Virus record (IMG/VR): IMGVR_UViG_3300046660_000458
Location: 1-62,788 of that record
DNA from: a virus
Reading direction: 5' to 3' (one strand)
DNA: 62,788 nt
The position numbers were made by a program, and so were the translations under genes. The notes under the pieces were generated by a model. It worked only from the letters and a program-made list of their open reading frames with translations, was not told the origin of the DNA and did not search any database. Shown here piece after piece: positions 1,912-58,881 of the stretch (positions are counted from its first letter, which is position 1; each line of letters starts with the position of its first letter).

Positions 1912-2132
1912 GTCGCATCTCCATCTTCATTGATATAGGATCCGAATAGACGGTTGGGTGCGCGGGGCGCTTCAGCGAATTTGACGGGTATTCCGTCTAT
2001 CCTGGTAATGCGTGACAGCAGCGCCAGTGGCACGAAGGGGCCTTCAAACATCTCGCCGATCACTGCCCTTTGCTGATCAAGGCTAGCGGAAAATTCAAAT
2101 CGCTTCATGTCTCTACGGGGAGTGATGGGCAT
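1908..2132 (-). CDS. Hypothetical early protein
   Basis: 74 residues. The first ATG shares a base with the stop of the upstream phosphatase; a second Met at residue 9 (MKRFEFS) is an alternative start. No domain recognised. It is one of the tightly coupled leftward early genes. Confidence 0.7.
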   Translation of the reverse strand: MPITPRRDMKRFEFSASLDQQRAVIGEMFEGPFVPLALLSRITRIDGIPVKFAEAPRAPNRLFGSYINEDGDAT

Positions 2133-2833
2133 TAGGATTCCCCGCGATAGTGTGGCGATGGTGGCCCCTTAACTTCGATTATGTCTATTGGTCCGCCAGC
2201 AATATCATCGTCGAACACGCCAACCACGATGCGCCCGGTTAGCCACGCGAACGTGTCGAGATCGGTTCGATTGGCGTAGCACTTCGGTCCATCCGCAAAC
2301 TGATGGTGTCCATGAACCACATGCTTGCCGCGATAGCCGACGTCAGCACCGTCTGGGTAAATATACCAGGCAAGTACTTGCTCAGGCTGCTCGGCAAGGG
2401 CGTAACTCTCGCTGACCCCGGCATGAACGTACACGCGATATGCGTCCTCGTAATAGCGAGGCAGCGACGCAATCCACTTCAGATGTTCTTGCGGGACTAC
2501 GCCAAGGTGCACCTGGCCACGGGGCGGGTGACCGTAGGAAAGCAGAGTCGCTCCGCCACCGTTTCCAATCCACCAATCCGGGTCGAGCGGTTTCATCACC
2601 GTCTCGAACATGATGTCTTCGTGGTTGCCCTTCAGGCAAATAAGTTTTGAATCGCCGGACGAGCCCATCATGAGGGCTTCGATAATCTTACGGCTATCGG
2701 GGCCGCGGTCTATGTAGTCACCCAAGGTGACGACAGTGAATGGGCCGGTGGCGTGGTCGATAATGGCATCGAGCGCCGCATCGAGAAGGTCAAACCGGCC
2801 GTGCAGATCCGCAATTGCATATGTGAGGCTCAC
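2132..2833 (-). CDS. Lambda-type serine/threonine protein phosphatase (metallophosphoesterase)
   Basis: 233 residues, about the length of lambda NinI/PP. All metal-binding motifs of the PPP family are visible in order: DLHG (residues 9-12), GDYIDRG (about 38-44), GNHE (about 69-72), a HAG near residue 138 and HGH near 176. It would dephosphorylate Ser/Thr/Tyr phosphoproteins, or act more generally as a phosphoesterase, with two Mn2+ or similar ions. It overlaps the next gene upstream by ATGA. In lambda the homologue is in the ninR region, consistent with an early, host-modulating role here. Confidence 0.92.
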   Translation of the reverse strand: MSLTYAIADLHGRFDLLDAALDAIIDHATGPFTVVTLGDYIDRGPDSRKIIEALMMGSSGDSKLICLKGNHEDIMFETVMKPLDPDWWIGNGGGATLLSYGHPPRGQVHLGVVPQEHLKWIASLPRYYEDAYRVYVHAGVSESYALAEQPEQVLAWYIYPDGADVGYRGKHVVHGHHQFADGPKCYANRTDLDTFAWLTGRIVVGVFDDDIAGGPIDIIEVKGPPSPHYRGES

Positions 2834-21783: not shown

Positions 21784-21799
21784 GTGGACGTTGGTCCAC
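21784..21799 (+). repeat. Perfect hairpin before tnpB (possible IS200/IS605 left end)
   Basis: GTGGAC-GTTG-GTCCAC: a six-base perfect stem with a four-base loop, 12 bases before the tnpB start. Subterminal hairpins of this kind mark IS200/IS605 ends. A second, imperfect CGGGA/TCCCG pair surrounds the tnpB stop (about 22958-22983). Confidence 0.5.
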
Positions 21800-21811
21800 A
21801 CTGCCGAGGTG

Positions 21812-22972
21812 ATGAGCGTGCATCTAAGCTTTAAGTATCGTCTCTTGCCGACCCGGAAGCAGCATGCCGCCTTGGCGCACATTCTGGAGGGACAGCGGCT
21901 GCTTTATAATGCCGCTCTGGAGGAGCGTATCGGCGCCTACCGACGGGCTGGCAAAGCCGTATCCTTTGCTGCCCAGTCGCGCGCCCTCACGGAGTGCCGC
22001 CGTGAGATCCCCTACATGGGGACCGTTCAACGAACAATACAGGAGGATACGCTTAAGCGCCTTGACCTAGCATTCGCGGCTTTTTTCCGGCGGGTAAAGG
22101 CAGGTCAAAAGCCAGGGTTCCCGCGCTTTCGCAGCAAAGATAGATGGCGATCATTTACCGTCCGTCAACAATACGGGATGTCGCTGGTCGGCCGGCGGCT
22201 GAAATTTAAGGGGCTCCCTGGGTCGATCCGCTTCCACCAACATAGGCCGCTGCCAAGTGATAGCGAGCCAACCATGGCCGTGATCCGGAAAGACGCTAAG
22301 GGATGGTCGATCAGCTTCATCGTAATGGCCATTGCGAGTCCCGCGCACGATCGCGAACAAGCTATTGGGATTGATGTTGGGCTGAACAGCATGGCGACAT
22401 TATCGAACGGCGAAATAATCCCTAACCCGCGCATTGCAAGGCGGGCACAGAAGGAAATTCGACGCAGGCAGCGAGCCCTATCCCGATGTAAGAAAGGTTC
22501 TGGCCGCCGTTTAAAGGTTAAGGCCTCCCTGGAGCGGTCTCACCGGAAAATAGTCAATACCCGGGCAACTCATCTCCATCAGGTATCAGCCTCTCTCGCC
22601 CGCGATTACCAGACCATTGTAGTAGAGAGGCTGAATATTCGCGGCATGGTGCGCAGTACGATGGCGCGGGACATCCACGATGCAGCATGGTCAATATTCA
22701 AATTTATGCTTGCCTACAAGGCTGAAAGAGCCGGTGGACAACTAATCGAGGTAGATCCTAAATTCACCTCACAGGACTGCTCCGGCTGTGGCGAACGCGT
22801 TCCCAAGACGCTATCCGTCCGTGAGCACTCTTGCCCATCCTGCGGACTGACTCTCAACCGCGATCACAATGCGGCTCTGAACATTCTGCACAAGGCCAAA
22901 TTGGGTCTTGAGTCCGGTAACGTGGCTCAGTGGAGCGAGCGTCGGCCTAGAAATATCGGGAGCGTGGCATGA
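21812..22972 (+). CDS. tnpB: TnpB (IS200/IS605 OrfB), intact RNA-guided nuclease
   Basis: 386 residues from the ATG at 21812 (GAGGTG ahead). N-terminal FKYRLLPTRKQ ... LYNAALEER (HTH/REC part), then the split RuvC triad: Asp188 in IGIDVGLN, Glu272 in VVERLNIRGM, Asp351 in NRDHNAA, and a zinc ribbon CSGC ... CPSCG. All catalytic residues are present, so the nuclease is probably active. No tnpA is visible. The guide (omega) RNA would be expected from the 3' end of the gene and just after it. It lies between attP and tRNA genes, so it travels with the phage integration site. Confidence 0.93.
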   Translation: MSVHLSFKYRLLPTRKQHAALAHILEGQRLLYNAALEERIGAYRRAGKAVSFAAQSRALTECRREIPYMGTVQRTIQEDTLKRLDLAFAAFFRRVKAGQKPGFPRFRSKDRWRSFTVRQQYGMSLVGRRLKFKGLPGSIRFHQHRPLPSDSEPTMAVIRKDAKGWSISFIVMAIASPAHDREQAIGIDVGLNSMATLSNGEIIPNPRIARRAQKEIRRRQRALSRCKKGSGRRLKVKASLERSHRKIVNTRATHLHQVSASLARDYQTIVVERLNIRGMVRSTMARDIHDAAWSIFKFMLAYKAERAGGQLIEVDPKFTSQDCSGCGERVPKTLSVREHSCPSCGLTLNRDHNAALNILHKAKLGLESGNVAQWSERRPRNIGSVA

Positions 22973-24806: not shown

Positions 24807-25114
24807 TCGATTTCCTTCGCGACACCGTCGCTCTTATCCCAGCCGTCCAATTCAACAACCACGAGGGCCTGACAGGCCGGGGCTATGACCTCATCGAGCC
24901 CGAGCCATAGGACATGGTCTACGGGATCTATCCCGCTCGACATCGCGATTGCGTGTGCGTGAGCTATTGGACAGAACACCCTGACGCCTCGCGCGATGAG
25001 GCGACCGGCAACTTCGCAGACATCCTCGCTGGCCTGATCGAGCCCGGGCTTATAGCGCGTGTAAGGGCTGGCGAGATAGACGAGGCGGAAGGCGGCGAGT
25101 TCGTGGAGATTCAT
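24740..25114 (-). CDS. DUF1937 protein (nucleoside 2-deoxyribosyltransferase-like)
   Basis: 124 residues. VYLASPYT near residue 12, AGRLIARGVRVFCPIAHAHAI, DPVDHVLWLGLDE and ALVVVELDGWDKSDGVAKEIEW are the DUF1937 pattern, in the fold of nucleoside 2-deoxyribosyltransferases. Relatives on phages may act on nucleotides or nucleotide signals. ATGA overlap with the gene upstream. Confidence 0.88.
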   Translation of the reverse strand: MNLHELAAFRLVYLASPYTRYKPGLDQASEDVCEVAGRLIARGVRVFCPIAHAHAIAMSSGIDPVDHVLWLGLDEVIAPACQALVVVELDGWDKSDGVAKEIEWFADRPIFYLDPKTMNLRTSP

Positions 25115-25608
25115 TTGCGGGCCGCTATGGCGAGGCTGGCCATGTGAACCGGGGCGCGAGAGTTGGGGTCGTACTTGCAGGCGATGCGCACAGCATCACG
25201 AGCGGACTTCCCGCAATCCATCGCTACTAGCGCCATATCGCCGCCAGAGCCAACGGCAGCGAACGGTCCCGAGATTTCCCACAGGCCGTAATCCTCCATC
25301 TCGCTATCCCAATTCTCCGGCGAGGTCATGGTCGTGGCGATCTTGTAGACGCGACCCTTGGGCAGGACGAGAAGGCCGAGGATGTCCGCACGGAGAGCCA
25401 TTAGGGATTCATAACTCGGCAGTTGAGCCGGCGTCTTGACCTTATCCAGCATCGCAACTAGAGACCGGCCGTCGTTCTGGCCTGCCGTGCCGAATAGCGC
25501 ACCGCTCGATAGCCGCGAGATTTTTGTGGTGAGCGTGTCGACCGTGCCGCCATATGTCCAGCAACTGTCGCAAGCCATGACCCCGTCACGATAAGCAATC
25601 GTTGTCAT
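25111..25608 (-). CDS. Proteasome-fold Ntn hydrolase-like protein
   Basis: 165 residues. MTTIAYRDGVMACDS at the N-terminus, then KISRL and ALFGTAGQND and AAVGSGGDMALVAMDCG follow the beta-subunit/HslV fold, with Thr-2 as the likely nucleophile after Met removal. Such proteins occur in phage late regions near tail genes. They may be virion-associated or maturation proteases; the substrate is unknown. Confidence 0.8.
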   Translation of the reverse strand: MTTIAYRDGVMACDSCWTYGGTVDTLTTKISRLSSGALFGTAGQNDGRSLVAMLDKVKTPAQLPSYESLMALRADILGLLVLPKGRVYKIATTMTSPENWDSEMEDYGLWEISGPFAAVGSGGDMALVAMDCGKSARDAVRIACKYDPNSRAPVHMASLAIAARK

Positions 25609-25805
25609 GCATCCACCGACCGCGAATACCGCAGCCCTCTCGGATCACCCAGGACCGCGCGAGTCTGTCCCGGCGTTATCCCAGCAGCTTCACGAAGTTC
25701 AATCCAAAGCTTTGCTTCATCGCAATCTCGATCAGCAGTCCAATAGGCTGCGAAATAGACCGCAACGATTGCTGCGCGCATTCTTTCAAGGTCGCGGTCG
25801 CTCAT
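25605..25805 (-). CDS. Hypothetical small protein
   Basis: 66 residues, helical, starting MSDRDLERMRAAIVAVYF. Four-base overlaps on both sides link it to the metallophosphoesterase and the Ntn hydrolase. Function unknown. Confidence 0.7.
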   Translation of the reverse strand: MSDRDLERMRAAIVAVYFAAYWTADRDCDEAKLWIELREAAGITPGQTRAVLGDPRGLRYSRSVDA

Positions 25806-27475
25806 GCCCGGTATCTATCTCCGTGCTTGGTGATGATTGTGCGCTTGCTGTTTGGGTATACGATGATGTCAGACGCGCTATGTGACGACGGCCCTTTCTT
25901 TAAGGCCGGATCATCACCGTTAGCGCCCGCGCTATAGACGCCATCATGAATCGTTGCGGTGTGGTCATGGCCCTTGTTTATCTTGATGGCCACTCTGGCG
26001 AGGTTCGATGTCGTGCCCCTGGTGCCGTTACTGCCAAGGTGGCCATGCAGGCCACACTCGATCCCGCCGCGGTCTCTGCAAATCTCGAATGAACTGCCGA
26101 TCGGGATGAAGTTGATACCCTCAAGGTTTCGGGAATCGGCCTCCTTGAGGACGTGGCGGAAGATTGAGAACGTCTCGTCTCCAAGGCGCCCGGCTTCCAT
26201 GGCCGCGAGGTTCCAGCGATAGAACGCCTCTGCGTTGGTCAGGTCTTTGCGAGGGTCTGCCCGCTGAAGCCAGCGCAAGATCCAGTAGTCGTGATTACTC
26301 TCGACGACGTGCGACCGGCACCACTGGCGCTCAGTGGCCCGGAGGAATTGCGAGCACCCGACGACTTCCGCCGCAACGTTCAGTTTGCCGGCGACATGCA
26401 ATGGATACCGCTCGAGGTGCTTGTCTTCCTGCCAATGGTTGATGGCCGCGCCGTGGAACAGGTCATGAAAAAACTGATCGAAGGGCCGGAGATCATCCAG
26501 CATTGAGGTTTCGGAGACCGGGGCTAGCGTAGCCGCATCAAGTCCCCACGCAGCCCGCGCCGCGCCCTGCTCCAATACGCTCCTATGTACGTCGCCCCAG
26601 GTAATCGCAGCGACCCGGTGCCCTGCCGTGACTTTGCCGGCTGAGACGGCATGGTCCAAGTCTTGAAACGAACCGTCTTCGACTGCGTTAATCTGTCGGC
26701 AAAAGTGACGACCCTGCGGATCGATCTCGATTAACGTTGCGCCGATGACGTGATGAAACGCGGCCTTGAGGCCGGCCTTTTTCGGGATGTAGTTTTCGAC
26801 CGTGCAACAGCCCGTCGTCATGATGACGGGGGGCATTTTGCCGGGCATCGCCGGGACGGTCTCAAGGGCTACCTTGGCGTGAGGAAAGACGCCCCATTGC
26901 CCACGAGTATAAGTGTGTAGTCCGGACAGCGGTCGCTCTGCCGTCGGCAGCGTATTCATCTCAGCGCAGAACAGGACATCGCCGCATTCAACCCGCTCAA
27001 AGCGGAGATGCGACCTCACGGCCTCGGCAAAGACATTGTTGCGCGTCGTGTGGTCCGTGAACGTTCCTAACTGGTAGGTGAACGGGCCGACTAGAATTTC
27101 AGCGCCGACGAAGGCGGCATAAGCCTTCAGGTTCTGCCAGAACCGATCGTGGACGGGAGTATCGTTCTGCGCCGCAGTGACGAGCCAGCGTCTGGCGGGC
27201 GGCATGATGTGACCGCGACTTATGGACGTTGCGGACCTATTCCAAAGGGTCCAGTCCGGCGAGAATGATTTTTTGCCGTTCTCGGTGTTGAGTTTCTGAC
27301 GCCTCACCCAAGACGAAAGCCGGCGCTGGTCTACCGGGATATCTTTGGCGGCCCACTGGACAGACGAGCCCTTACCGCCAGCAACGCCTTGGGGGGAATA
27401 TCCGGCCCTTAATCTCTTCTCGATCGCCGCTTTGAACTTGACAGAAATCTCTTCAGCAATTGGAGGGGCAGGCAT
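25802..27475 (-). CDS. Large metallophosphoesterase resembling T5 A1
   Basis: 557 residues, close to the length I recall for phage T5 A1. An N-terminal HTH-like stretch (YSPQGVAGGKGSSVQWAAKD, residues ~26-45) precedes a long middle part. The C-terminal half carries metallophosphatase motifs in order: DVH (residues ~295-297), Asp/His in PFDQFFHDLFHG, ESNHDYW (~392-398) and GLHGHLG (~475-481). These would hold two metals. T5 A1 takes part in host DNA breakdown and DNA transfer at infection. Here the gene lies after the lysis genes at the end of the late operon, so the protein may be injected or act late. The T5 link is from memory of motif layout, not an alignment. Confidence 0.7.
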   Translation of the reverse strand: MPAPPIAEEISVKFKAAIEKRLRAGYSPQGVAGGKGSSVQWAAKDIPVDQRRLSSWVRRQKLNTENGKKSFSPDWTLWNRSATSISRGHIMPPARRWLVTAAQNDTPVHDRFWQNLKAYAAFVGAEILVGPFTYQLGTFTDHTTRNNVFAEAVRSHLRFERVECGDVLFCAEMNTLPTAERPLSGLHTYTRGQWGVFPHAKVALETVPAMPGKMPPVIMTTGCCTVENYIPKKAGLKAAFHHVIGATLIEIDPQGRHFCRQINAVEDGSFQDLDHAVSAGKVTAGHRVAAITWGDVHRSVLEQGAARAAWGLDAATLAPVSETSMLDDLRPFDQFFHDLFHGAAINHWQEDKHLERYPLHVAGKLNVAAEVVGCSQFLRATERQWCRSHVVESNHDYWILRWLQRADPRKDLTNAEAFYRWNLAAMEAGRLGDETFSIFRHVLKEADSRNLEGINFIPIGSSFEICRDRGGIECGLHGHLGSNGTRGTTSNLARVAIKINKGHDHTATIHDGVYSAGANGDDPALKKGPSSHSASDIIVYPNSKRTIITKHGDRYRA

Positions 27476-27476
27476 T

Positions 27477-27878
27477 TTAAGCGCCAGATCCCTGCACGAA
27501 GCAGTAGACCGCGCCGCCAGCGCTAATGAAAATCACGGCATGTCCGGTCGGGTTTCCAGCGTCGTACTTCAGCTTGCGATCGGGAATTTCGAACTCTGTC
27601 CCGATGTCGACATGAGGCCGACCTAGCGGAGCATCCGGCCTGTCGTCCGTAATGCGAGCGTAAGTCTTGCCGTTCCTCACCACGATTTCATCTGCCCAGT
27701 ACGCGTCTGCTGTGCCACAGCATGGTACTGATGGATTGTCGGGCTGCTTGAGACTTCGATACCACTCGCGGACTGTCGGATCTGATGTTTCCCATTGCCC
27801 GACATCTCGCGCCCTTGCATTTCCAATAAATAACGCAGCAAGGATTCCAAACACCACACCAAGAGTAGCGACTTTCAT
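27477..27878 (-). CDS. Secreted protein with signal peptide
   Basis: 133 residues. Signal peptide (hydrophobic residues ~5-20, cleavage near ARA|RD), then DVGQWETSDP, VREWYRSLKQPD, PCCGTADAYWAD, YARITDDRPD and NPTGHAVIF. This is a recurrent periplasmic protein of alphaproteobacterial phages and chromosomes of unknown role. It sits between lysis genes and the A1-like gene. Confidence 0.8.
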   Translation of the reverse strand: MKVATLGVVFGILAALFIGNARARDVGQWETSDPTVREWYRSLKQPDNPSVPCCGTADAYWADEIVVRNGKTYARITDDRPDAPLGRPHVDIGTEFEIPDRKLKYDAGNPTGHAVIFISAGGAVYCFVQGSGA

Positions 27879-28099: not shown

Positions 28100-28444
28100 T
28101 TATGAGGACGAACCTTGCGCCTCGAGCACGCGGTCAAGACGATCCGTCACGCCGCGGATGTCTCGCTTAATCTCTTCCACGAGGGCGCTGAAGCGCTGCT
28201 CGGCCTGGAAAAGTTCTTTGTCAGAAACAAACATGGTCGCGGCGGCGACGCGATAATCGGACAACTCTTTCTGGATGACGTCTACTTTCAACTGAAGTGC
28301 CGCAGAAAGCACAGTCGCGGCATGGGCGGTTGTTTCAGTATTGGTGATGCGATCTGAAAACCGCATCCAGAACCCACCGATCGCCAGCACGGCCATTGTA
28401 ATAGCGCAGATGGCGGCGACGGCGGCCCAGGATATTTCAATCAT
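28100..28444 (-). CDS. Membrane-anchored coiled-coil protein
   Basis: 114 residues from the ATG at 28444, which overlaps the upstream stop. One N-terminal membrane span (about 7-28) followed by a long helix (KVDVIQKELSDYRV ... RFSALVEEIKRDI ... DRLDRVLEAQ), probably coiled coil. Common in the lysis region of rhizobial phages; possibly part of the envelope-disruption machinery. Confidence 0.7.
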   Translation of the reverse strand: MIEISWAAVAAICAITMAVLAIGGFWMRFSDRITNTETTAHAATVLSAALQLKVDVIQKELSDYRVAAATMFVSDKELFQAEQRFSALVEEIKRDIRGVTDRLDRVLEAQGSSS

Positions 28445-28863
28445 AGCTTCGCTTCCGGCTGCAGCAATTCGTCGACCGGATCGCGAGGCGCGACAGGCGC
28501 GGCCGTCGGCCACTCAGGCGCAACGGGAGTCGGAAGAACTGGCGACCCTTTAGCGGGCCAGACCCGCGACTTGATGCGCTTGACAATGCCCGGACGCTTG
28601 CTAGGTGCCTTGACCAGCTTCGCAGACGATCGCGCATCAAGCGATGCTGGCCTCGCCGCCGGGCGCTTCCAGCCGAACGCCGCAACGCCGCCCTCAACTT
28701 GGCTGTCGATCCAGTTTTGATCGTATTGGGCCTTGCCCTTGACGGCGTATTTCGGAGCCTCGAAAACCTTGCTCTCCCCACCGGGAATCGATCCTCGGGT
28801 CGCCTCGAAACACCCGGCCAGCGGCACGGCGAGTAGCGCGACCGCTGCGACGCGCGCAATCAT
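28441..28863 (-). CDS. Lipoprotein (o-spanin candidate)
   Basis: 140 residues from the ATG at 28863 (ATGA overlap). MIARVAAVALLAVPLAGC is a lipoprotein signal with lipobox LAGC; the mature part is Pro/Lys/Ala-rich and little structured. Position directly after a membrane-anchored coil and the endolysin suggests an outer-membrane spanin subunit, although it is longer than most. Confidence 0.65.
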   Translation of the reverse strand: MIARVAAVALLAVPLAGCFEATRGSIPGGESKVFEAPKYAVKGKAQYDQNWIDSQVEGGVAAFGWKRPAARPASLDARSSAKLVKAPSKRPGIVKRIKSRVWPAKGSPVLPTPVAPEWPTAAPVAPRDPVDELLQPEAKL

Positions 28864-29129
28864 CGGCACGCCCCTGTCGTCTGATCCCAAGCCTTATCCT
28901 GGCTCTGGCAATCCTTCAGTTTGCGGCGGGCCTCGATCGCACGGTTCACCAGTTTGGCATCGGCGCGCGCAATCTTTGCAACAGCATCGTCGACGCCGCT
29001 CTGATAAACCTTGTGATGCCAGACGCCGTAAGTTGCGAGTGCTGCCGCCACCAGACCGGCGGCGACCAGGATCTTCGTGAGAAGACCCGCCGCGCTGAGC
29101 ATTGACAGTATTGCCCTGATGTAGCTCAT
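28860..29129 (-). CDS. Inner-membrane coil protein (i-spanin/Rz-like candidate)
   Basis: 89 residues from the ATG at 29129 (overlap with the endolysin stop). One membrane span (about 15-37), then a helical, charged periplasmic part with GVDDAVAKIARADAKL and RRKLKDC. This is the layout of Rz-type i-spanins and pairs with the lipoprotein next to it. Confidence 0.7.
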   Translation of the reverse strand: MSYIRAILSMLSAAGLLTKILVAAGLVAAALATYGVWHHKVYQSGVDDAVAKIARADAKLVNRAIEARRKLKDCQSQDKAWDQTTGACR

Positions 29130-30340
29130 TGCCGCGCTCCTGATGTGACGGAATCGTTGACGATCTTGATGCCCCGACGCGCGTTCAGCGCTAGAAGTCC
29201 GAATCCGACCACTGCCGTCATTATCCAGACAGAGGCCGGAACCTTGCCGACGTATTCCCATGCCGGGCTGAGATAGCTAGGGTCCGTCGGAAGATCGTCC
29301 TTATGGTCCGTGAAGAAGTCCCAAGCCTGCGAAACATAGCCGCTGGCCAGATTGTAAAGCCACGTCACGAACGCGACGGCCGACGCCCAAGCAGTCACCA
29401 AGAAATTCTGTTTCTGCGGAACCACGTCTGGCGCCACAGTCGCAACCGTCTTGGCGTCGCCGCTTGCCCGCTCAGCCGTCACGGGGCGAAACCAGCCTTG
29501 GCTTTCTGCCCGGCCGAGTTCTGCCTTGATGGCATCGCGCTCCGCGTTAAAGGCGTCGAGCGACGCGGGGACGGCGATATTGCCGCCGCGATCGTTGATG
29601 AAGCCCGCAATCGCCCCGGACGTGCCACTGCCCCAAAGTCCATCGATGGCGCCCGGACTGTAGTGGCGCGCCTTCAGCCGCTTCTGAACGGCATAGATTT
29701 CCGGGTCGCCGGTTGCGGTGGGATCGTGCGGCAAAGGCTCGGGTGCGGCGGGAGGAGCATCGTCGGACGTCTCGCCCTCGATCTCGTCGGCCGGGGCTTG
29801 CGGAACTACGTTGGCGATGACCCGCGCGACCGGTGGCCACACGGGTTTCGCCGACTTCGGCTTGCGCCCGCCGTTGTCGACGAACTCGTAATGCATCCAG
29901 TCGGGACGGTCGTGATACCAGCCGCCCCACATCGCGCCCTGTCGACAGAACGCATCGGTGATGAACTGCGGCATGCTGCCCTTGACGCCCATCGCGTTCT
30001 GCAGGGCGTTGAGATCGATCGCAGCGGCATAGGCGTGGTTTGACCATTTGGTGGTTGAGCCCCGCACATAGCGATGATTGTAGGCCCCGAAATACTTGGA
30101 TGCTCCTGACGCGTCGATCTTCGCCTGACTGTGCTGGCAATAATCCCAGATCTCGTTCAAAGCAGCCAGCAGAGCCGGGGCGGCCTTGCGGTGGAACGAG
30201 ATGGATTTGACCCGCTTCCCCTCGTAATACATCGCGAACGGCGGGACCACAGGCACCATTTGAGCCGCGATTTCCCCTTTGCCAGGATCGCCGTAGAAGG
30301 CATTCCGGGCTGTCTGGTTATCTTTCGGCCAAACGGTCAT
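29126..30340 (-). CDS. Endolysin: M15 peptidase + peptidoglycan-binding domain + membrane anchor
   Basis: 404 residues. Residues ~1-155: VanY/M15-type D,D-peptidase with WSNHAYAAAIDLNA (first His and Asp zinc ligands) and DWMHYEF (last His). Residues ~215-260: PG_binding_1 pattern (IYAVQKRLKARHYSPGAIDG, then GSGTSGAIAGFI). Residues ~315-395: hydrophobic segments, probably one or two membrane spans, unusual for an endolysin and suggestive of a signal-anchor-release or membrane-tethered form. It cuts cross-links in host peptidoglycan. Confidence 0.85.
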   Translation of the reverse strand: MTVWPKDNQTARNAFYGDPGKGEIAAQMVPVVPPFAMYYEGKRVKSISFHRKAAPALLAALNEIWDYCQHSQAKIDASGASKYFGAYNHRYVRGSTTKWSNHAYAAAIDLNALQNAMGVKGSMPQFITDAFCRQGAMWGGWYHDRPDWMHYEFVDNGGRKPKSAKPVWPPVARVIANVVPQAPADEIEGETSDDAPPAAPEPLPHDPTATGDPEIYAVQKRLKARHYSPGAIDGLWGSGTSGAIAGFINDRGGNIAVPASLDAFNAERDAIKAELGRAESQGWFRPVTAERASGDAKTVATVAPDVVPQKQNFLVTAWASAVAFVTWLYNLASGYVSQAWDFFTDHKDDLPTDPSYLSPAWEYVGKVPASVWIMTAVVGFGLLALNARRGIKIVNDSVTSGARQ

Positions 30341-32975: not shown

Positions 32976-34505
32976 TTACAATTCCCTCGTGATGGCGAGA
33001 AGCAGACCGACCGGAGTAGCGTCGCCACCTTCGGCCACGTTCGCGACGGTCACTGTGATGGTTTGTGTATCGGTCAGAGCGCCGTCGGAGACCTGAACGA
33101 TGACGATGTACTGGTTGTTCGTATCTGCGTCGGTCGGAGATTCGTAATTCGGCGCATCGATAAATGCCAAAACGCCAGTTCCGGAATCGATAGTGAATAG
33201 TGCGCCATCAGCCCCGCCGATGATCGAGAATGCCAGCAAGTCGTGGTTGGCGTCCGTTGCCGTGACGGTTGTCACAGCCGTGGTGTTTTCATTGATAGTG
33301 ATCGACGCTGTCGGGCCGCCGCCATTGGACGTAATGACCGGCGCGACGTTCGTCAGATACGAGAAGTCTATCTGCTCTGCGGTGCCGCTGACGCTGTGGT
33401 CTGCCGCATTTCTTGCGACCGAAGTCAGTCGGCCCAGAAATGTGATGCTCGGATCGTCTGCGAAATATTCGATGTCGCCAGGTTCGGCGCCGTAGAGATC
33501 GTTCATCCCCGTGAATGACATCTTCTTTCGGGCGATATTATCGATCAGCAGGGATTTATTGACAAGAAGGTTTGCCGCACTCTCCGTCATGCCTATCGGC
33601 AGTTCGATAGTCTGCGAATCTTGTGACGCCGTCACCGGGACCGGAAAGCGCTCCAACTTCCCCGGCACAGAATTCATATCGTTGTCACGGTCAGTATCGA
33701 TAAATGAGAGTAGTCGCAGGCGCGGAATGCTCAGGGGGTCCGCTCTTACAAACTTTATCGAACCTGCCGTCGTGTTACTCCGGGTAATGGTTGATGTGAT
33801 GCCAGAGCCCGCGTCATTCTCGAATATGCGTATTTTGTCTGAGGCGGTGATATTCCAGTTTCGCAGGATGCCCCTGCACTGCTGGGCGAATTCGATAAAC
33901 CCGCCATTATATTGCTGCGGGATAATCCAGAACGGATCTTCCCCCTCAACATCAAAACTAAATTCTGAATCATCGAAACGAGCATCGCGAGCCAAAACCG
34001 CGAGCGCGTCGTTCCTCGTAATAGAATCGGCCTCATGAACGAAAATCGAGGCGAACGGGACGACGTTATTGAACGCGTCAAGCGGGCAAGCAATCACCTC
34101 AACGCAGATTTGCGAACGGTAGGCTACGGCACGAGCACCATAACGAGTAACGCTGCTGGCGAACGGAGTTTGATCTTCCGTTCCCGTCTTCACATTGACG
34201 GTCATTCCAGCGAATGGAGTCCCGATCGGTCCGCCGGCAGACGTCCACGATTCCGTTCCGTTAAGCCTAAGGCTGGTTATGGTTCGCGTTGCGGATGGAT
34301 TTGCAGAGCACCCGGGAGAGGCAATGAAGTCCACCAGTTGGACGGCGCCGACCTCATAGATAAAAGGGCCCTCAATGATCCGACAGCCCATCAGGGCCTG
34401 GCCGCCGACGAACTTGGCTTGATCCTTTCCGAACAGCGCCGCCTCAAGCGCTGTGGAATCGATACCGGTTACCGTAGATACGGCGCTCGTCGATAGATCA
34501 GCCAT
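32976..34505 (-). CDS. Tail tip/hub protein with C-terminal cadherin-like domain
   Basis: 509 residues. Residues ~1-415 look like a tail hub component (DPFWIIPQQYNGG, FAQQCRGILRNW, ELPIGMTESAANLL). Residues ~420-495 are a cadherin-like unit: SITINENTTAVTTVTATDANHD, then GADGALFTIDSGTGVLAF, NYESPTDADTNNQYIVIVQVSDG and TQTITVTVANV, with the D-x-N-x-D type calcium ligands. The cadherin part is probably exposed and may bind host surface or neighbouring tail proteins. Confidence 0.75.
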   Translation of the reverse strand: MADLSTSAVSTVTGIDSTALEAALFGKDQAKFVGGQALMGCRIIEGPFIYEVGAVQLVDFIASPGCSANPSATRTITSLRLNGTESWTSAGGPIGTPFAGMTVNVKTGTEDQTPFASSVTRYGARAVAYRSQICVEVIACPLDAFNNVVPFASIFVHEADSITRNDALAVLARDARFDDSEFSFDVEGEDPFWIIPQQYNGGFIEFAQQCRGILRNWNITASDKIRIFENDAGSGITSTITRSNTTAGSIKFVRADPLSIPRLRLLSFIDTDRDNDMNSVPGKLERFPVPVTASQDSQTIELPIGMTESAANLLVNKSLLIDNIARKKMSFTGMNDLYGAEPGDIEYFADDPSITFLGRLTSVARNAADHSVSGTAEQIDFSYLTNVAPVITSNGGGPTASITINENTTAVTTVTATDANHDLLAFSIIGGADGALFTIDSGTGVLAFIDAPNYESPTDADTNNQYIVIVQVSDGALTDTQTITVTVANVAEGGDATPVGLLLAITREL

Positions 34506-57934: not shown

Positions 57935-58291
57935 TCATTGCTTACTTCCTTGGTGACTTTCTAGGATCTCCGCCACGCGGCGATCTGTAGCCTCCATATC
58001 ACGCCGAAATGCGGCGAGCTCCATCTGGCGTTCTTTGGTCTTTAGTTCGTGCGCCGCCTTACCGATCGCACGTTCCGCAAAGTCACACCACGACAGACAT
58101 TCTTTTCTCATCCGCGAGTCCGCAAGCCCAGAGCACCAAAGCCGTGCCTGCCCCAACATTTGCGTGGCCCGATCAACCTGCTCTTGTCGCGGCCATGTCG
58201 CATTAACGAATATGAGTTTACTACTCACCAGCCTGAGTGACGCCATTCTCCACGCGCGCGCGTCTTCGTCCGATTCGAACCATCCCATCAT
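57935..58291 (-). CDS. Hypothetical helical protein
   Basis: 118 residues, charged helices (DRATQMLGQARLWCSGL, ERQMELAAFRRDMEATDRRV). Overlaps the NusG-like stop by four bases, so it is coupled to it and may be a partner or simply co-expressed. Confidence 0.7.
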   Translation of the reverse strand: MMGWFESDEDARAWRMASLRLVSSKLIFVNATWPRQEQVDRATQMLGQARLWCSGLADSRMRKECLSWCDFAERAIGKAAHELKTKERQMELAAFRRDMEATDRRVAEILESHQGSKQ

Positions 58292-58881
58292 GCCGCCCTC
58301 ACCTGTGACCCATCAACTTCTACTTCAATTTCGCCGCCTAGCCCAGACAGTAGCATGCGGATACGCCCGTTCTTGTTGAGCTTCTTCATCTTCCCAATCC
58401 AGTCGTCGTAAGGGCCGCTATCGATCTTGGCGAGGCCTCCTTCCACGAACGGAATCTTCAGCTTGTCCGAACCTGTCCGTTGGGCTTGTTCGTAGGCCGA
58501 GAGTTTATCTTCTTCCTGCCTGCGTATTGCGTCCATGAGTGCGCCAGGAATCGAGGCTGGTGACAACTCGCCTCGTCCGTCCGGTGTTTTAACGTAGCCC
58601 GAAACTCCAGGCACAGCCTTAGCTGCCATGAACGCCTCGTTGCCTGTCGTGAATCTAATGAACGCGTAGCCGCGGAACATCGGCTCTGAAATCTTCTTCC
58701 AGACCTTCTTGCCGTTCTCGTCTTTCAACTGGCGCTGATTACGGTCCTTCACGGCTTGAGCTCGATACACCATAGGACAGAATGCAACGAACTTCCTTGC
58801 TATGAGTCCAGCAGTAGCTGTGACTTCACGTTGGGGTTCGGTAACGAGGATGTACCAGCGTTCTTGGATTTCAGTTGCCAC
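58288..58881 (-). CDS. NusG-like transcription antitermination protein
   Basis: 197 residues. N-terminal NGN pattern: ERWYILVTEPQREVTATAGL, FVAFCPMVYRA, SEPMFRGYAFIRFT, AVPGVSGYVKTPDG, then SIPGALMDAIRRQEE. C-terminal KOW-type beta barrel: FVEGGLAKIDSGPYDDWIGK, MLLSGLGGEIEVEVDG. It resembles RfaH/NusG paralogues used as operon-specific antiterminators. Its place just before the late block suggests it loads on RNA polymerase to read through into late genes. Confidence 0.9.
   Translation of the reverse strand: MATEIQERWYILVTEPQREVTATAGLIARKFVAFCPMVYRAQAVKDRNQRQLKDENGKKVWKKISEPMFRGYAFIRFTTGNEAFMAAKAVPGVSGYVKTPDGRGELSPASIPGALMDAIRRQEEDKLSAYEQAQRTGSDKLKIPFVEGGLAKIDSGPYDDWIGKMKKLNKNGRIRMLLSGLGGEIEVEVDGSQVRAA

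What the first reader, a model, noticed from the sequence alone, without database searches (positions are those of the whole stretch)
25802..27475. T5-A1-like metallophosphoesterase at the end of a siphophage late operon
A 557-residue protein with an N-terminal HTH-like stretch and metallophosphatase motifs in its C-terminal half (DVH ... SNHD ... GHLG) is rare outside T5-like phages, where A1 drives host DNA breakdown and the second step of DNA entry. Here the gene is temperate-phage borne and late, coupled by four-base overlaps to a small helical protein, an Ntn hydrolase and a DUF1937 protein. Such a late nuclease could be packaged and injected, or act on the host chromosome before lysis.
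Basis: partly seen in the sequence, partly recalled or inferred. Interest (0 to 1): 0.62.

Follow-up and report, generated by a model that had tools for sequence, protein, structure and literature searches.

The report
Late-operon A1 nuclease-like phage protein
A phage that can lie dormant in bacteria carries a relative of the T5 phage protein needed to destroy host DNA, but places it with its lysis genes rather than among genes used at the start of infection; many relatives keep genes for handling DNA building blocks right behind it, which suggests that they break down and reuse the host's DNA.

Summary
The gene is real. It lies on the minus strand (27475 to 25802), encodes 557 aa, and is a genuine T5 A1 homologue: PHROG 1745 "DNA transfer protein" at E 2e-147, phmmer to T5 A1 at 4e-73. 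It has a variable N-terminal HTH, a conserved middle domain, and an autonomous C-terminal metallophosphoesterase (MPE) domain whose metal-site residues are all conserved in canonical order. The C-terminal model has pLDDT 95, and its 50 listed PDB matches are PPP-type phosphatases (best E 9e-3).

Late placement is right and not unique. The window sits in a 21-member clade with 18 late, 0 early and 3 unassigned loci, many of them alphaproteobacterial prophages. Other lineages carry A1 inside head-tail operons.

New here: genes for dNMP kinase and nucleoside-deoxyribosyltransferase-like proteins sit directly downstream of A1 far more often than random placement gives (13 vs 1.7; 5 vs 0.4). The window's DUF1937 gene is one of the latter.

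Best reading: a host-DNA-degrading MPE nuclease expressed late and feeding deoxynucleotide recycling. Nuclease activity is inferred, not shown. Packaging and injection has no positive evidence.

The parts
25802..27475 (-). A1-family gene, 557 aa (PHROG 1745)
   Evidence: PHROG E 2.3e-147; T5 A1 phmmer E 4e-73; AF2 pLDDT 93
27215..27475 (-). N-terminal region, residues 1-87, HTH-like and variable
   Evidence: Pfam HTH hits in relatives; helices in the AF2 model
25805..26632 (-). C-terminal metallophosphoesterase domain, residues 282-557
   Evidence: AF2 pLDDT 95.3, pTM 0.92; PDB Foldseek matches are PPP phosphatases; BFVD MPE matches
26585..26593 (-). MPE motif I, D295-x-H297
   Evidence: invariant in 61 sequences
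26462..26464 (-). MPE motif II, D338
   Evidence: invariant in 61 sequences
26291..26296 (-). MPE motif III, N394-H395 (SNHD)
   Evidence: invariant in 61 sequences
26045..26047 (-). MPE motif IV, H477
   Evidence: invariant in 61 sequences
25961..25969 (-). MPE motif V, H503-x-H505
   Evidence: H505 invariant, H503 at least 90%
25605..25805 (-). 66-aa helical protein, 4-base overlap with A1, function unknown
   Evidence: no confident family
25111..25608 (-). HslV-like Ntn hydrolase
   Evidence: PHROG 1040 E 1.8e-32; recurs downstream of A1 in L131
24740..25114 (-). DUF1937, nucleoside 2-deoxyribosyltransferase-like
   Evidence: Pfam 5.6e-21, PHROG 355 1.7e-7; related genes lie downstream of A1 in four other loci
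27477..27878 (-). 133-aa gene directly upstream, same operon
   Evidence: homologue directly upstream of A1 in L002, E 9e-57
28100..29261 (-). spanin-like and lipoprotein genes of the lysis cassette
   Evidence: weak PHROG 739 Rz-like match and the reading of the sequences
29126..30340 (-). M15 endolysin
   Evidence: Pfam Peptidase_M15_4 1.6e-9, PHROG 181

Best explanation
The gene encodes an A1-family protein: an optional HTH, a conserved middle domain, and a two-metal calcineurin-like phosphoesterase (MPE) domain. In this temperate phage it lies at the end of the tail/lysis operon, so it should be silent in the lysogen and made only after commitment to lytic growth. Most likely it is a metal-dependent nuclease, or the essential part of one, that attacks the host chromosome in the producing cell. 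The released deoxynucleotides would be processed by products of adjacent genes: dNMP kinase in many relatives, the nucleoside-deoxyribosyltransferase-like DUF1937 protein in the window. Shown by computation: family membership, MPE fold and metal-ligand set, late position, recurrent linkage to deoxynucleotide genes. Inferred: nuclease activity, host chromosome as target, timing of expression, recycling.
For: PHROG 1745 E 2e-147 and T5 A1 4e-73. MPE metal ligands conserved in 61 sequences; MPE matches in BFVD at probability 1.00 and PPP phosphatases across the PDB list. T5 A1 is reported essential for host DNA degradation (PMC13250531). Late placement conserved in the clade: 18 late, 0 early, 3 unassigned. 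dNMP kinase within 1 kb downstream in 13 of 104 loci vs 1.65 random, 0 of 2000, not a seeding effect. Five of five deoxyribosyltransferase-like genes within 1 kb downstream. Pfam near/far comparison.
Against: No nuclease activity had been reported for any A1 (PMC8541194). PDB Foldseek E-values are only about 0.01, and the nearest solved folds are protein phosphatases. The window itself has no dNMP kinase gene. Degrading host DNA this late leaves little time for recycling. How phage DNA would be spared is unknown. Late expression is inferred from gene order alone.
Confidence: 0.5

Rival explanations
1. Late-made A1 is packaged in the virion and ejected with the DNA. It then does in the next cell what T5 A1 does after being newly made: host DNA breakdown and completion of DNA entry.
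For: T5 A1 acts at the start of infection (PMC13250531, PMC11879866). In R5C, Pan1 and relatives the gene lies between coat and head-tail adaptor genes.
Against: The virion protein lists in the main texts for phiCbK (8 proteins) and KASIA (13 proteins) do not include A1, although those phages carry it among replication genes. dNMP kinase neighbours fit action in the producing cell better. No packaging signal was identified or looked for.
Confidence: 0.14
2. A1 is mainly a transcription or takeover regulator: it binds DNA through the HTH and host RNA polymerase, and the MPE domain acts on something other than DNA.
For: T5 A1 co-purifies with RNA polymerase and alters its transcription; Gill et al. 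argue for a transcription role in phiCbK (PMC3556154). HTH in many relatives. Nearest solved folds are protein phosphatases.
Against: The HTH is the most variable part and is reduced or missing in some members (RcSimone, RHph_I38), while the metal site is conserved. Nucleotide-gene linkage is not expected for a regulator.
Confidence: 0.2
3. A1 lies late in the map but is expressed early from a promoter not seen here, so its role is the same as in T5.
For: Alphaproteobacterial or phage-specific promoters may escape a sigma-70 consensus scan.
Against: One-base gap to the preceding gene and no candidate site upstream; the lysis-gene neighbourhood is conserved across the clade.
Confidence: 0.08
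4. A1 in this setting acts against incoming DNA or other mobile elements late in infection (superinfection or competitor control) rather than on the host chromosome.
For: The end of the late operon beside integrase and tRNA genes is where accessory genes often sit (own knowledge); rare A1 homologues lie outside recognisable phage context (L132, L133).
Against: No direct evidence; position and family history fit host-DNA degradation better.
Confidence: 0.08

Closest known systems
Bacteriophage T5 A1 (AAS77051, PHROG 1745)
   Same: Same protein family over the core and C-terminal domain, 31% identity, same invariant MPE residues, nearly the same length (556 vs 557 aa)
   Different: T5: pre-early, in the terminal repeat, with A2 and dmp nearby, virulent phage with two-step injection. 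Here: end of the lysis operon of a temperate phage, no A2, dmp or T5.005 homologue
Rhodobacter phage RcCronus gene 22 ('T5 A1-like', AKU43311)
   Same: Temperate siphophage (PMC8601537); A1 at the end of the tail genes
   Different: 35% identity; RepA/ParA phage-plasmid-like replicon; followed by SSB and a dNMP kinase gene
phiCbK gp126 and related A1 (PMC3556154)
   Same: Same family; N-terminal HTH noted by the authors
   Different: Replication module of a large virulent phage; the authors favour a transcription role
Dinoroseobacter phage R5C gp55 and Pseudanabaena phage Pan1 gp25
   Same: Same family, in a late gene block
   Different: Inside the head-tail operon between coat and adaptor genes; R5C has no integrase or repressor (PMC5454422)
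Calcineurin-like metallophosphoesterases (PPP phosphatases, SbcD/Mre11)
   Same: Predicted fold and the D-x-H / D / N-H / H / H-x-H order
   Different: No Pfam metallophosphoesterase match at sequence level; extra N-terminal and middle domains

Membership tests
T5 A1 protein family (PHROG 1745) | Sequence homology over the core and C-terminal domain | tested here: met
   E 2.3e-147 over profile positions 80-540 of 542
T5 A1 protein family (PHROG 1745) | Invariant family residues, including the MPE set | tested here: met
T5 A1 protein family (PHROG 1745) | Required for host DNA degradation | not testable with these tools
   needs phage genetics
T5 pre-early first/second-step-transfer system | Gene in a pre-early terminal repeat | tested here: not met
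   gene is at the end of the tail/lysis operon; record classed 'linear', no end repeats found
T5 pre-early first/second-step-transfer system | A2 partner gene present | tested here: not met
   no A2 homologue in the window or any other locus (single-sequence phmmer, so distant homologues could be missed)
T5 pre-early first/second-step-transfer system | Binds RNA polymerase and membrane | not testable with these tools
   biochemistry
Calcineurin-like metallophosphoesterase superfamily | Five motifs with metal ligands in order | tested here: met
   D295xH297, D338, N394H395, H477, H503xH505
Calcineurin-like metallophosphoesterase superfamily | MPE fold | tested here: met
   BFVD matches at probability 1.00; PDB list of PPP phosphatases, best E 9e-3, probability 0.92
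Calcineurin-like metallophosphoesterase superfamily | Match to the Pfam metallophosphoesterase profiles | tested here: not met
   not among the listed families for 61 members at E <= 1; too divergent in sequence
Mre11/SbcD nucleases | Nuclease activity and Rad50/SbcC ATPase partner | not tested
   activity needs an assay; no ATPase partner was noticed next to A1, but it was not searched for; not filed as Mre11

The most novel reading that the evidence does not exclude
A1 is a widespread host-chromosome-degrading module in two timing versions: pre-early or early in many virulent phages, and in the lysis operon in temperate phages. The late version works with its own deoxynucleotide-recycling enzymes (dNMP kinase, deoxyribosyltransferase-like DUF1937) to turn host DNA into progeny DNA before lysis.
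Probability: 0.4. Interest if true: 0.6.

Novelty: new variant of a known kind. Interest (0 to 1): 0.47.

Why it matters
How T5 A1 works has been open for about fifty years. The family alignment, fold and invariant metal site give a specific mutational target. The late, temperate version uncouples A1 from two-step DNA injection, so host-DNA degradation can be tested apart from DNA entry, for example in the cultured temperate phage RcCronus. The recurrent dNMP-kinase and deoxyribosyltransferase-like neighbours make a testable prediction about the fate of host DNA.

Tried and rejected
(1) Rarity outside T5: rejected. (2) The trio 66-aa / Ntn / DUF1937 as a conserved block: rejected; an Ntn hydrolase gene recurs close downstream of A1 only in L131, and 4.6 kb away in L115. 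(3) Linkage of A1 to DNA methyltransferases looked strong (21 vs 7.5), but half of the seeds lay close to A1; an unselected Pfam comparison of near and far neighbours did not show a strong effect, so it is dropped. (4) Full-length model against PDB: no significant match; the isolated C-terminal domain was more informative. (5) Profile comparison with the window's own NinI-like phosphatase (2132-2833): no match. (6) First genome-contig scan with the single protein found nothing. (7) Search for T5 A2, dmp and T5.005 homologues: none outside T5. (8) An att repeat near the tRNA-Arg pair: no clear repeat. (9) Davison 2015, a key review, is not held.

Full report
Observation. The ORF is present as described but on the minus strand (27475 to 25802, 557 aa). 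Three downstream genes each overlap by four bases: a 66-aa protein, an HslV-like Ntn hydrolase (PHROG 1040, E 2e-32) and DUF1937 (Pfam 6e-21; PHROG 355 nucleoside 2-deoxyribosyltransferase, 2e-7). Upstream, with a one-base gap, is a 133-aa gene, then spanin-like genes and an M15 endolysin. No promoter-like site on the minus strand lies between 30718 and the A1 start. The window is an IMG/VR virus record with an integrase and a CI/LexA-type repressor.

Identity. The protein is a true A1 homologue: PHROG 1745 "DNA transfer protein", E 2.3e-147 over residues 88-555; direct match to T5 A1 (AY543070) at 4e-73, 31% identity. In sampled bacterial species it is present in about 0.25-0.8%. Excluding the seed genomes: 3 of 384, 1 of 368, 1 of 394, 2 of 347, 2 of 341.

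Structure. AlphaFold2 on 61 homologues gives pLDDT 93. A variable N-terminal HTH (single Pfam HTH families in up to 23 of 61 members) is followed by a conserved middle domain and a C-terminal domain that is predicted to fold on its own (residues 282-557, pLDDT 95.3, pTM 0.92). Foldseek against BFVD lists, after three longer relatives (the best is pf16 A1), a series of metallophosphoesterases at probability 1.00, and an SbcD-annotated protein at 0.98. The C-terminal model against PDB returns PP1/PP2A/PP5-type phosphatases in essentially every one of the 50 listed rows, best E 9e-3, none below 1e-3. The full-length model alone had no significant PDB match. The ligands D295, H297, D338, N394, H395, H477 and H505 are invariant and H503 is at least 90% in 61 sequences, in the order known for calcineurin-like enzymes (own knowledge). 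Which substrate class it belongs to is not resolved.

Position. Using homology profiles for late and early phage genes, 46 loci are late, 44 early and 27 unassigned. T5 and phiCbK carry A1 among pre-early or replication genes. In a 95-row tree the window lies in a 21-row supported clade with 18 late, none early and 3 unassigned; placement needs about 7 changes in the family (at least 4), against 24 for shuffled labels. A second late setting, between coat and adaptor genes, occurs in R5C, Pan1 and relatives. Loci in bacterial genomes, nearly all alphaproteobacterial and mostly prophage-like (Pseudosulfitobacter, Rhodovulum, Microvirga, Sphingopyxis, Sphingomonas, Acidisoma, Leisingera, Pleomorphomonas, Bradyrhizobium), are 12 late, 0 early and 4 unassigned, but that scan was seeded with the late clade. 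A PHROG-profile survey independent of it gave 4 late, 1 early (a 36.5-kb contig) and 4 unassigned. A cultured temperate case exists: RcCronus gene 22, from a phage listed as temperate in PMC8601537. Whether late placement follows from temperate life or only from shared descent is not separated here.

Neighbours. A dNMP kinase gene follows A1 within 1 kb on the same strand in 13 of 104 non-redundant loci; random placement gives 1.65, and 0 of 2000 placements reach 13. Re-seeding the profile from distant kinase genes recovers 39 of the 41 genes, and adjacency needs 8 changes on the tree. All 5 nucleoside-deoxyribosyltransferase-like genes found at E < 1e-20 (window DUF1937, L011, L138, L076, L054) lie within 1 kb downstream; two were seeds, so this count is somewhat biased, but Pfam independently links the other members to Nuc_deoxyrib_tr. 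L131 has dATP/dGTP diphosphohydrolase, DUF7768 and Ntn hydrolase genes behind A1. In a random sample of genes, neighbours within 1 kb include dGTP diphosphohydrolase (3), DNMK (2), Nuc_deoxyrib_tr (2) and YfbR (2), none of which is among the 25 commonest families 4-6.5 kb away. T5's own dmp 5'-nucleotidase lies 0.85 kb downstream of A1.

Mechanism. T5 A1 is described as essential for host DNA degradation (PMC13250531) and is among the most important T5 genes in a knock-down screen (PMC11879866), yet no nuclease activity had been reported for it (PMC8541194). The metal site, the HTH and the deoxynucleotide neighbours together favour a metal-dependent DNA-degrading role. In a temperate phage, coupling to the late operon would keep such an enzyme off in the lysogen. 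Nuclease activity, target and timing remain inferred. Packaging is possible, above all for the R5C/Pan1 setting, but has no positive evidence; virion lists in the main texts for phiCbK and KASIA lack A1, and the Pan1 list is in a supplement I could not open.

Verdict. A genuine A1-family member in a late, temperate variant that is widespread among alphaproteobacterial phages. I found no description of that class or of its nucleotide-gene linkage in the papers I could search, though individual A1 homologues outside T5 are known.

Noticed in passing
58288-58881 (-): NusG-domain protein (Pfam NusG 4e-11; PHROG transcription antiterminator) upstream of the late operon; a candidate late antiterminator.
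   Followed up: partly
21791-22972 (+): TnpB/OrfB IS605-family gene (Cas12f1-like zinc domain) between the integrase and two tandem tRNA-Arg genes.
   Followed up: partly
L132:9041-10906 and L133:8853-10781: A1 homologues in bacterial contigs beside EAL and TraC/TraG-like genes (L132), or chemotaxis-receptor and guanylate-cyclase genes (L133), with no evident phage genes.
   Followed up: partly
L134:9331-12141: A1 ORF of 936 aa in a 36.5-kb contig, with methylase before it and DNA polymerase genes after it; possibly an N-terminal fusion.
   Followed up: no
25111-25608 (-): HslV-like Ntn hydrolase (starts M-T-T); homologues lie close downstream of A1 in L131 and nearby in L115 and L091. Its role in phages is unexplained.
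   Followed up: partly
L101, L102, L109, L113: In these prophages A1 and its dNMP kinase gene lie just before tRNA genes (Ser, Ser, Thr, Pro/Arg), the likely attachment sites.
   Followed up: partly
2132-2833 (-): A second, unrelated metallophosphoesterase: NinI-like Ser/Thr phosphatase (PHROG 246, 3e-37).
   Followed up: no
32976-34505 (-): Tail protein with a C-terminal cadherin-like domain (Pfam 9e-8).
   Followed up: no
L022, L005, L012: dNMP kinase domains in long ORFs (376-400 aa) that also match the MazG-annotated protein; possible fusions.
   Followed up: no
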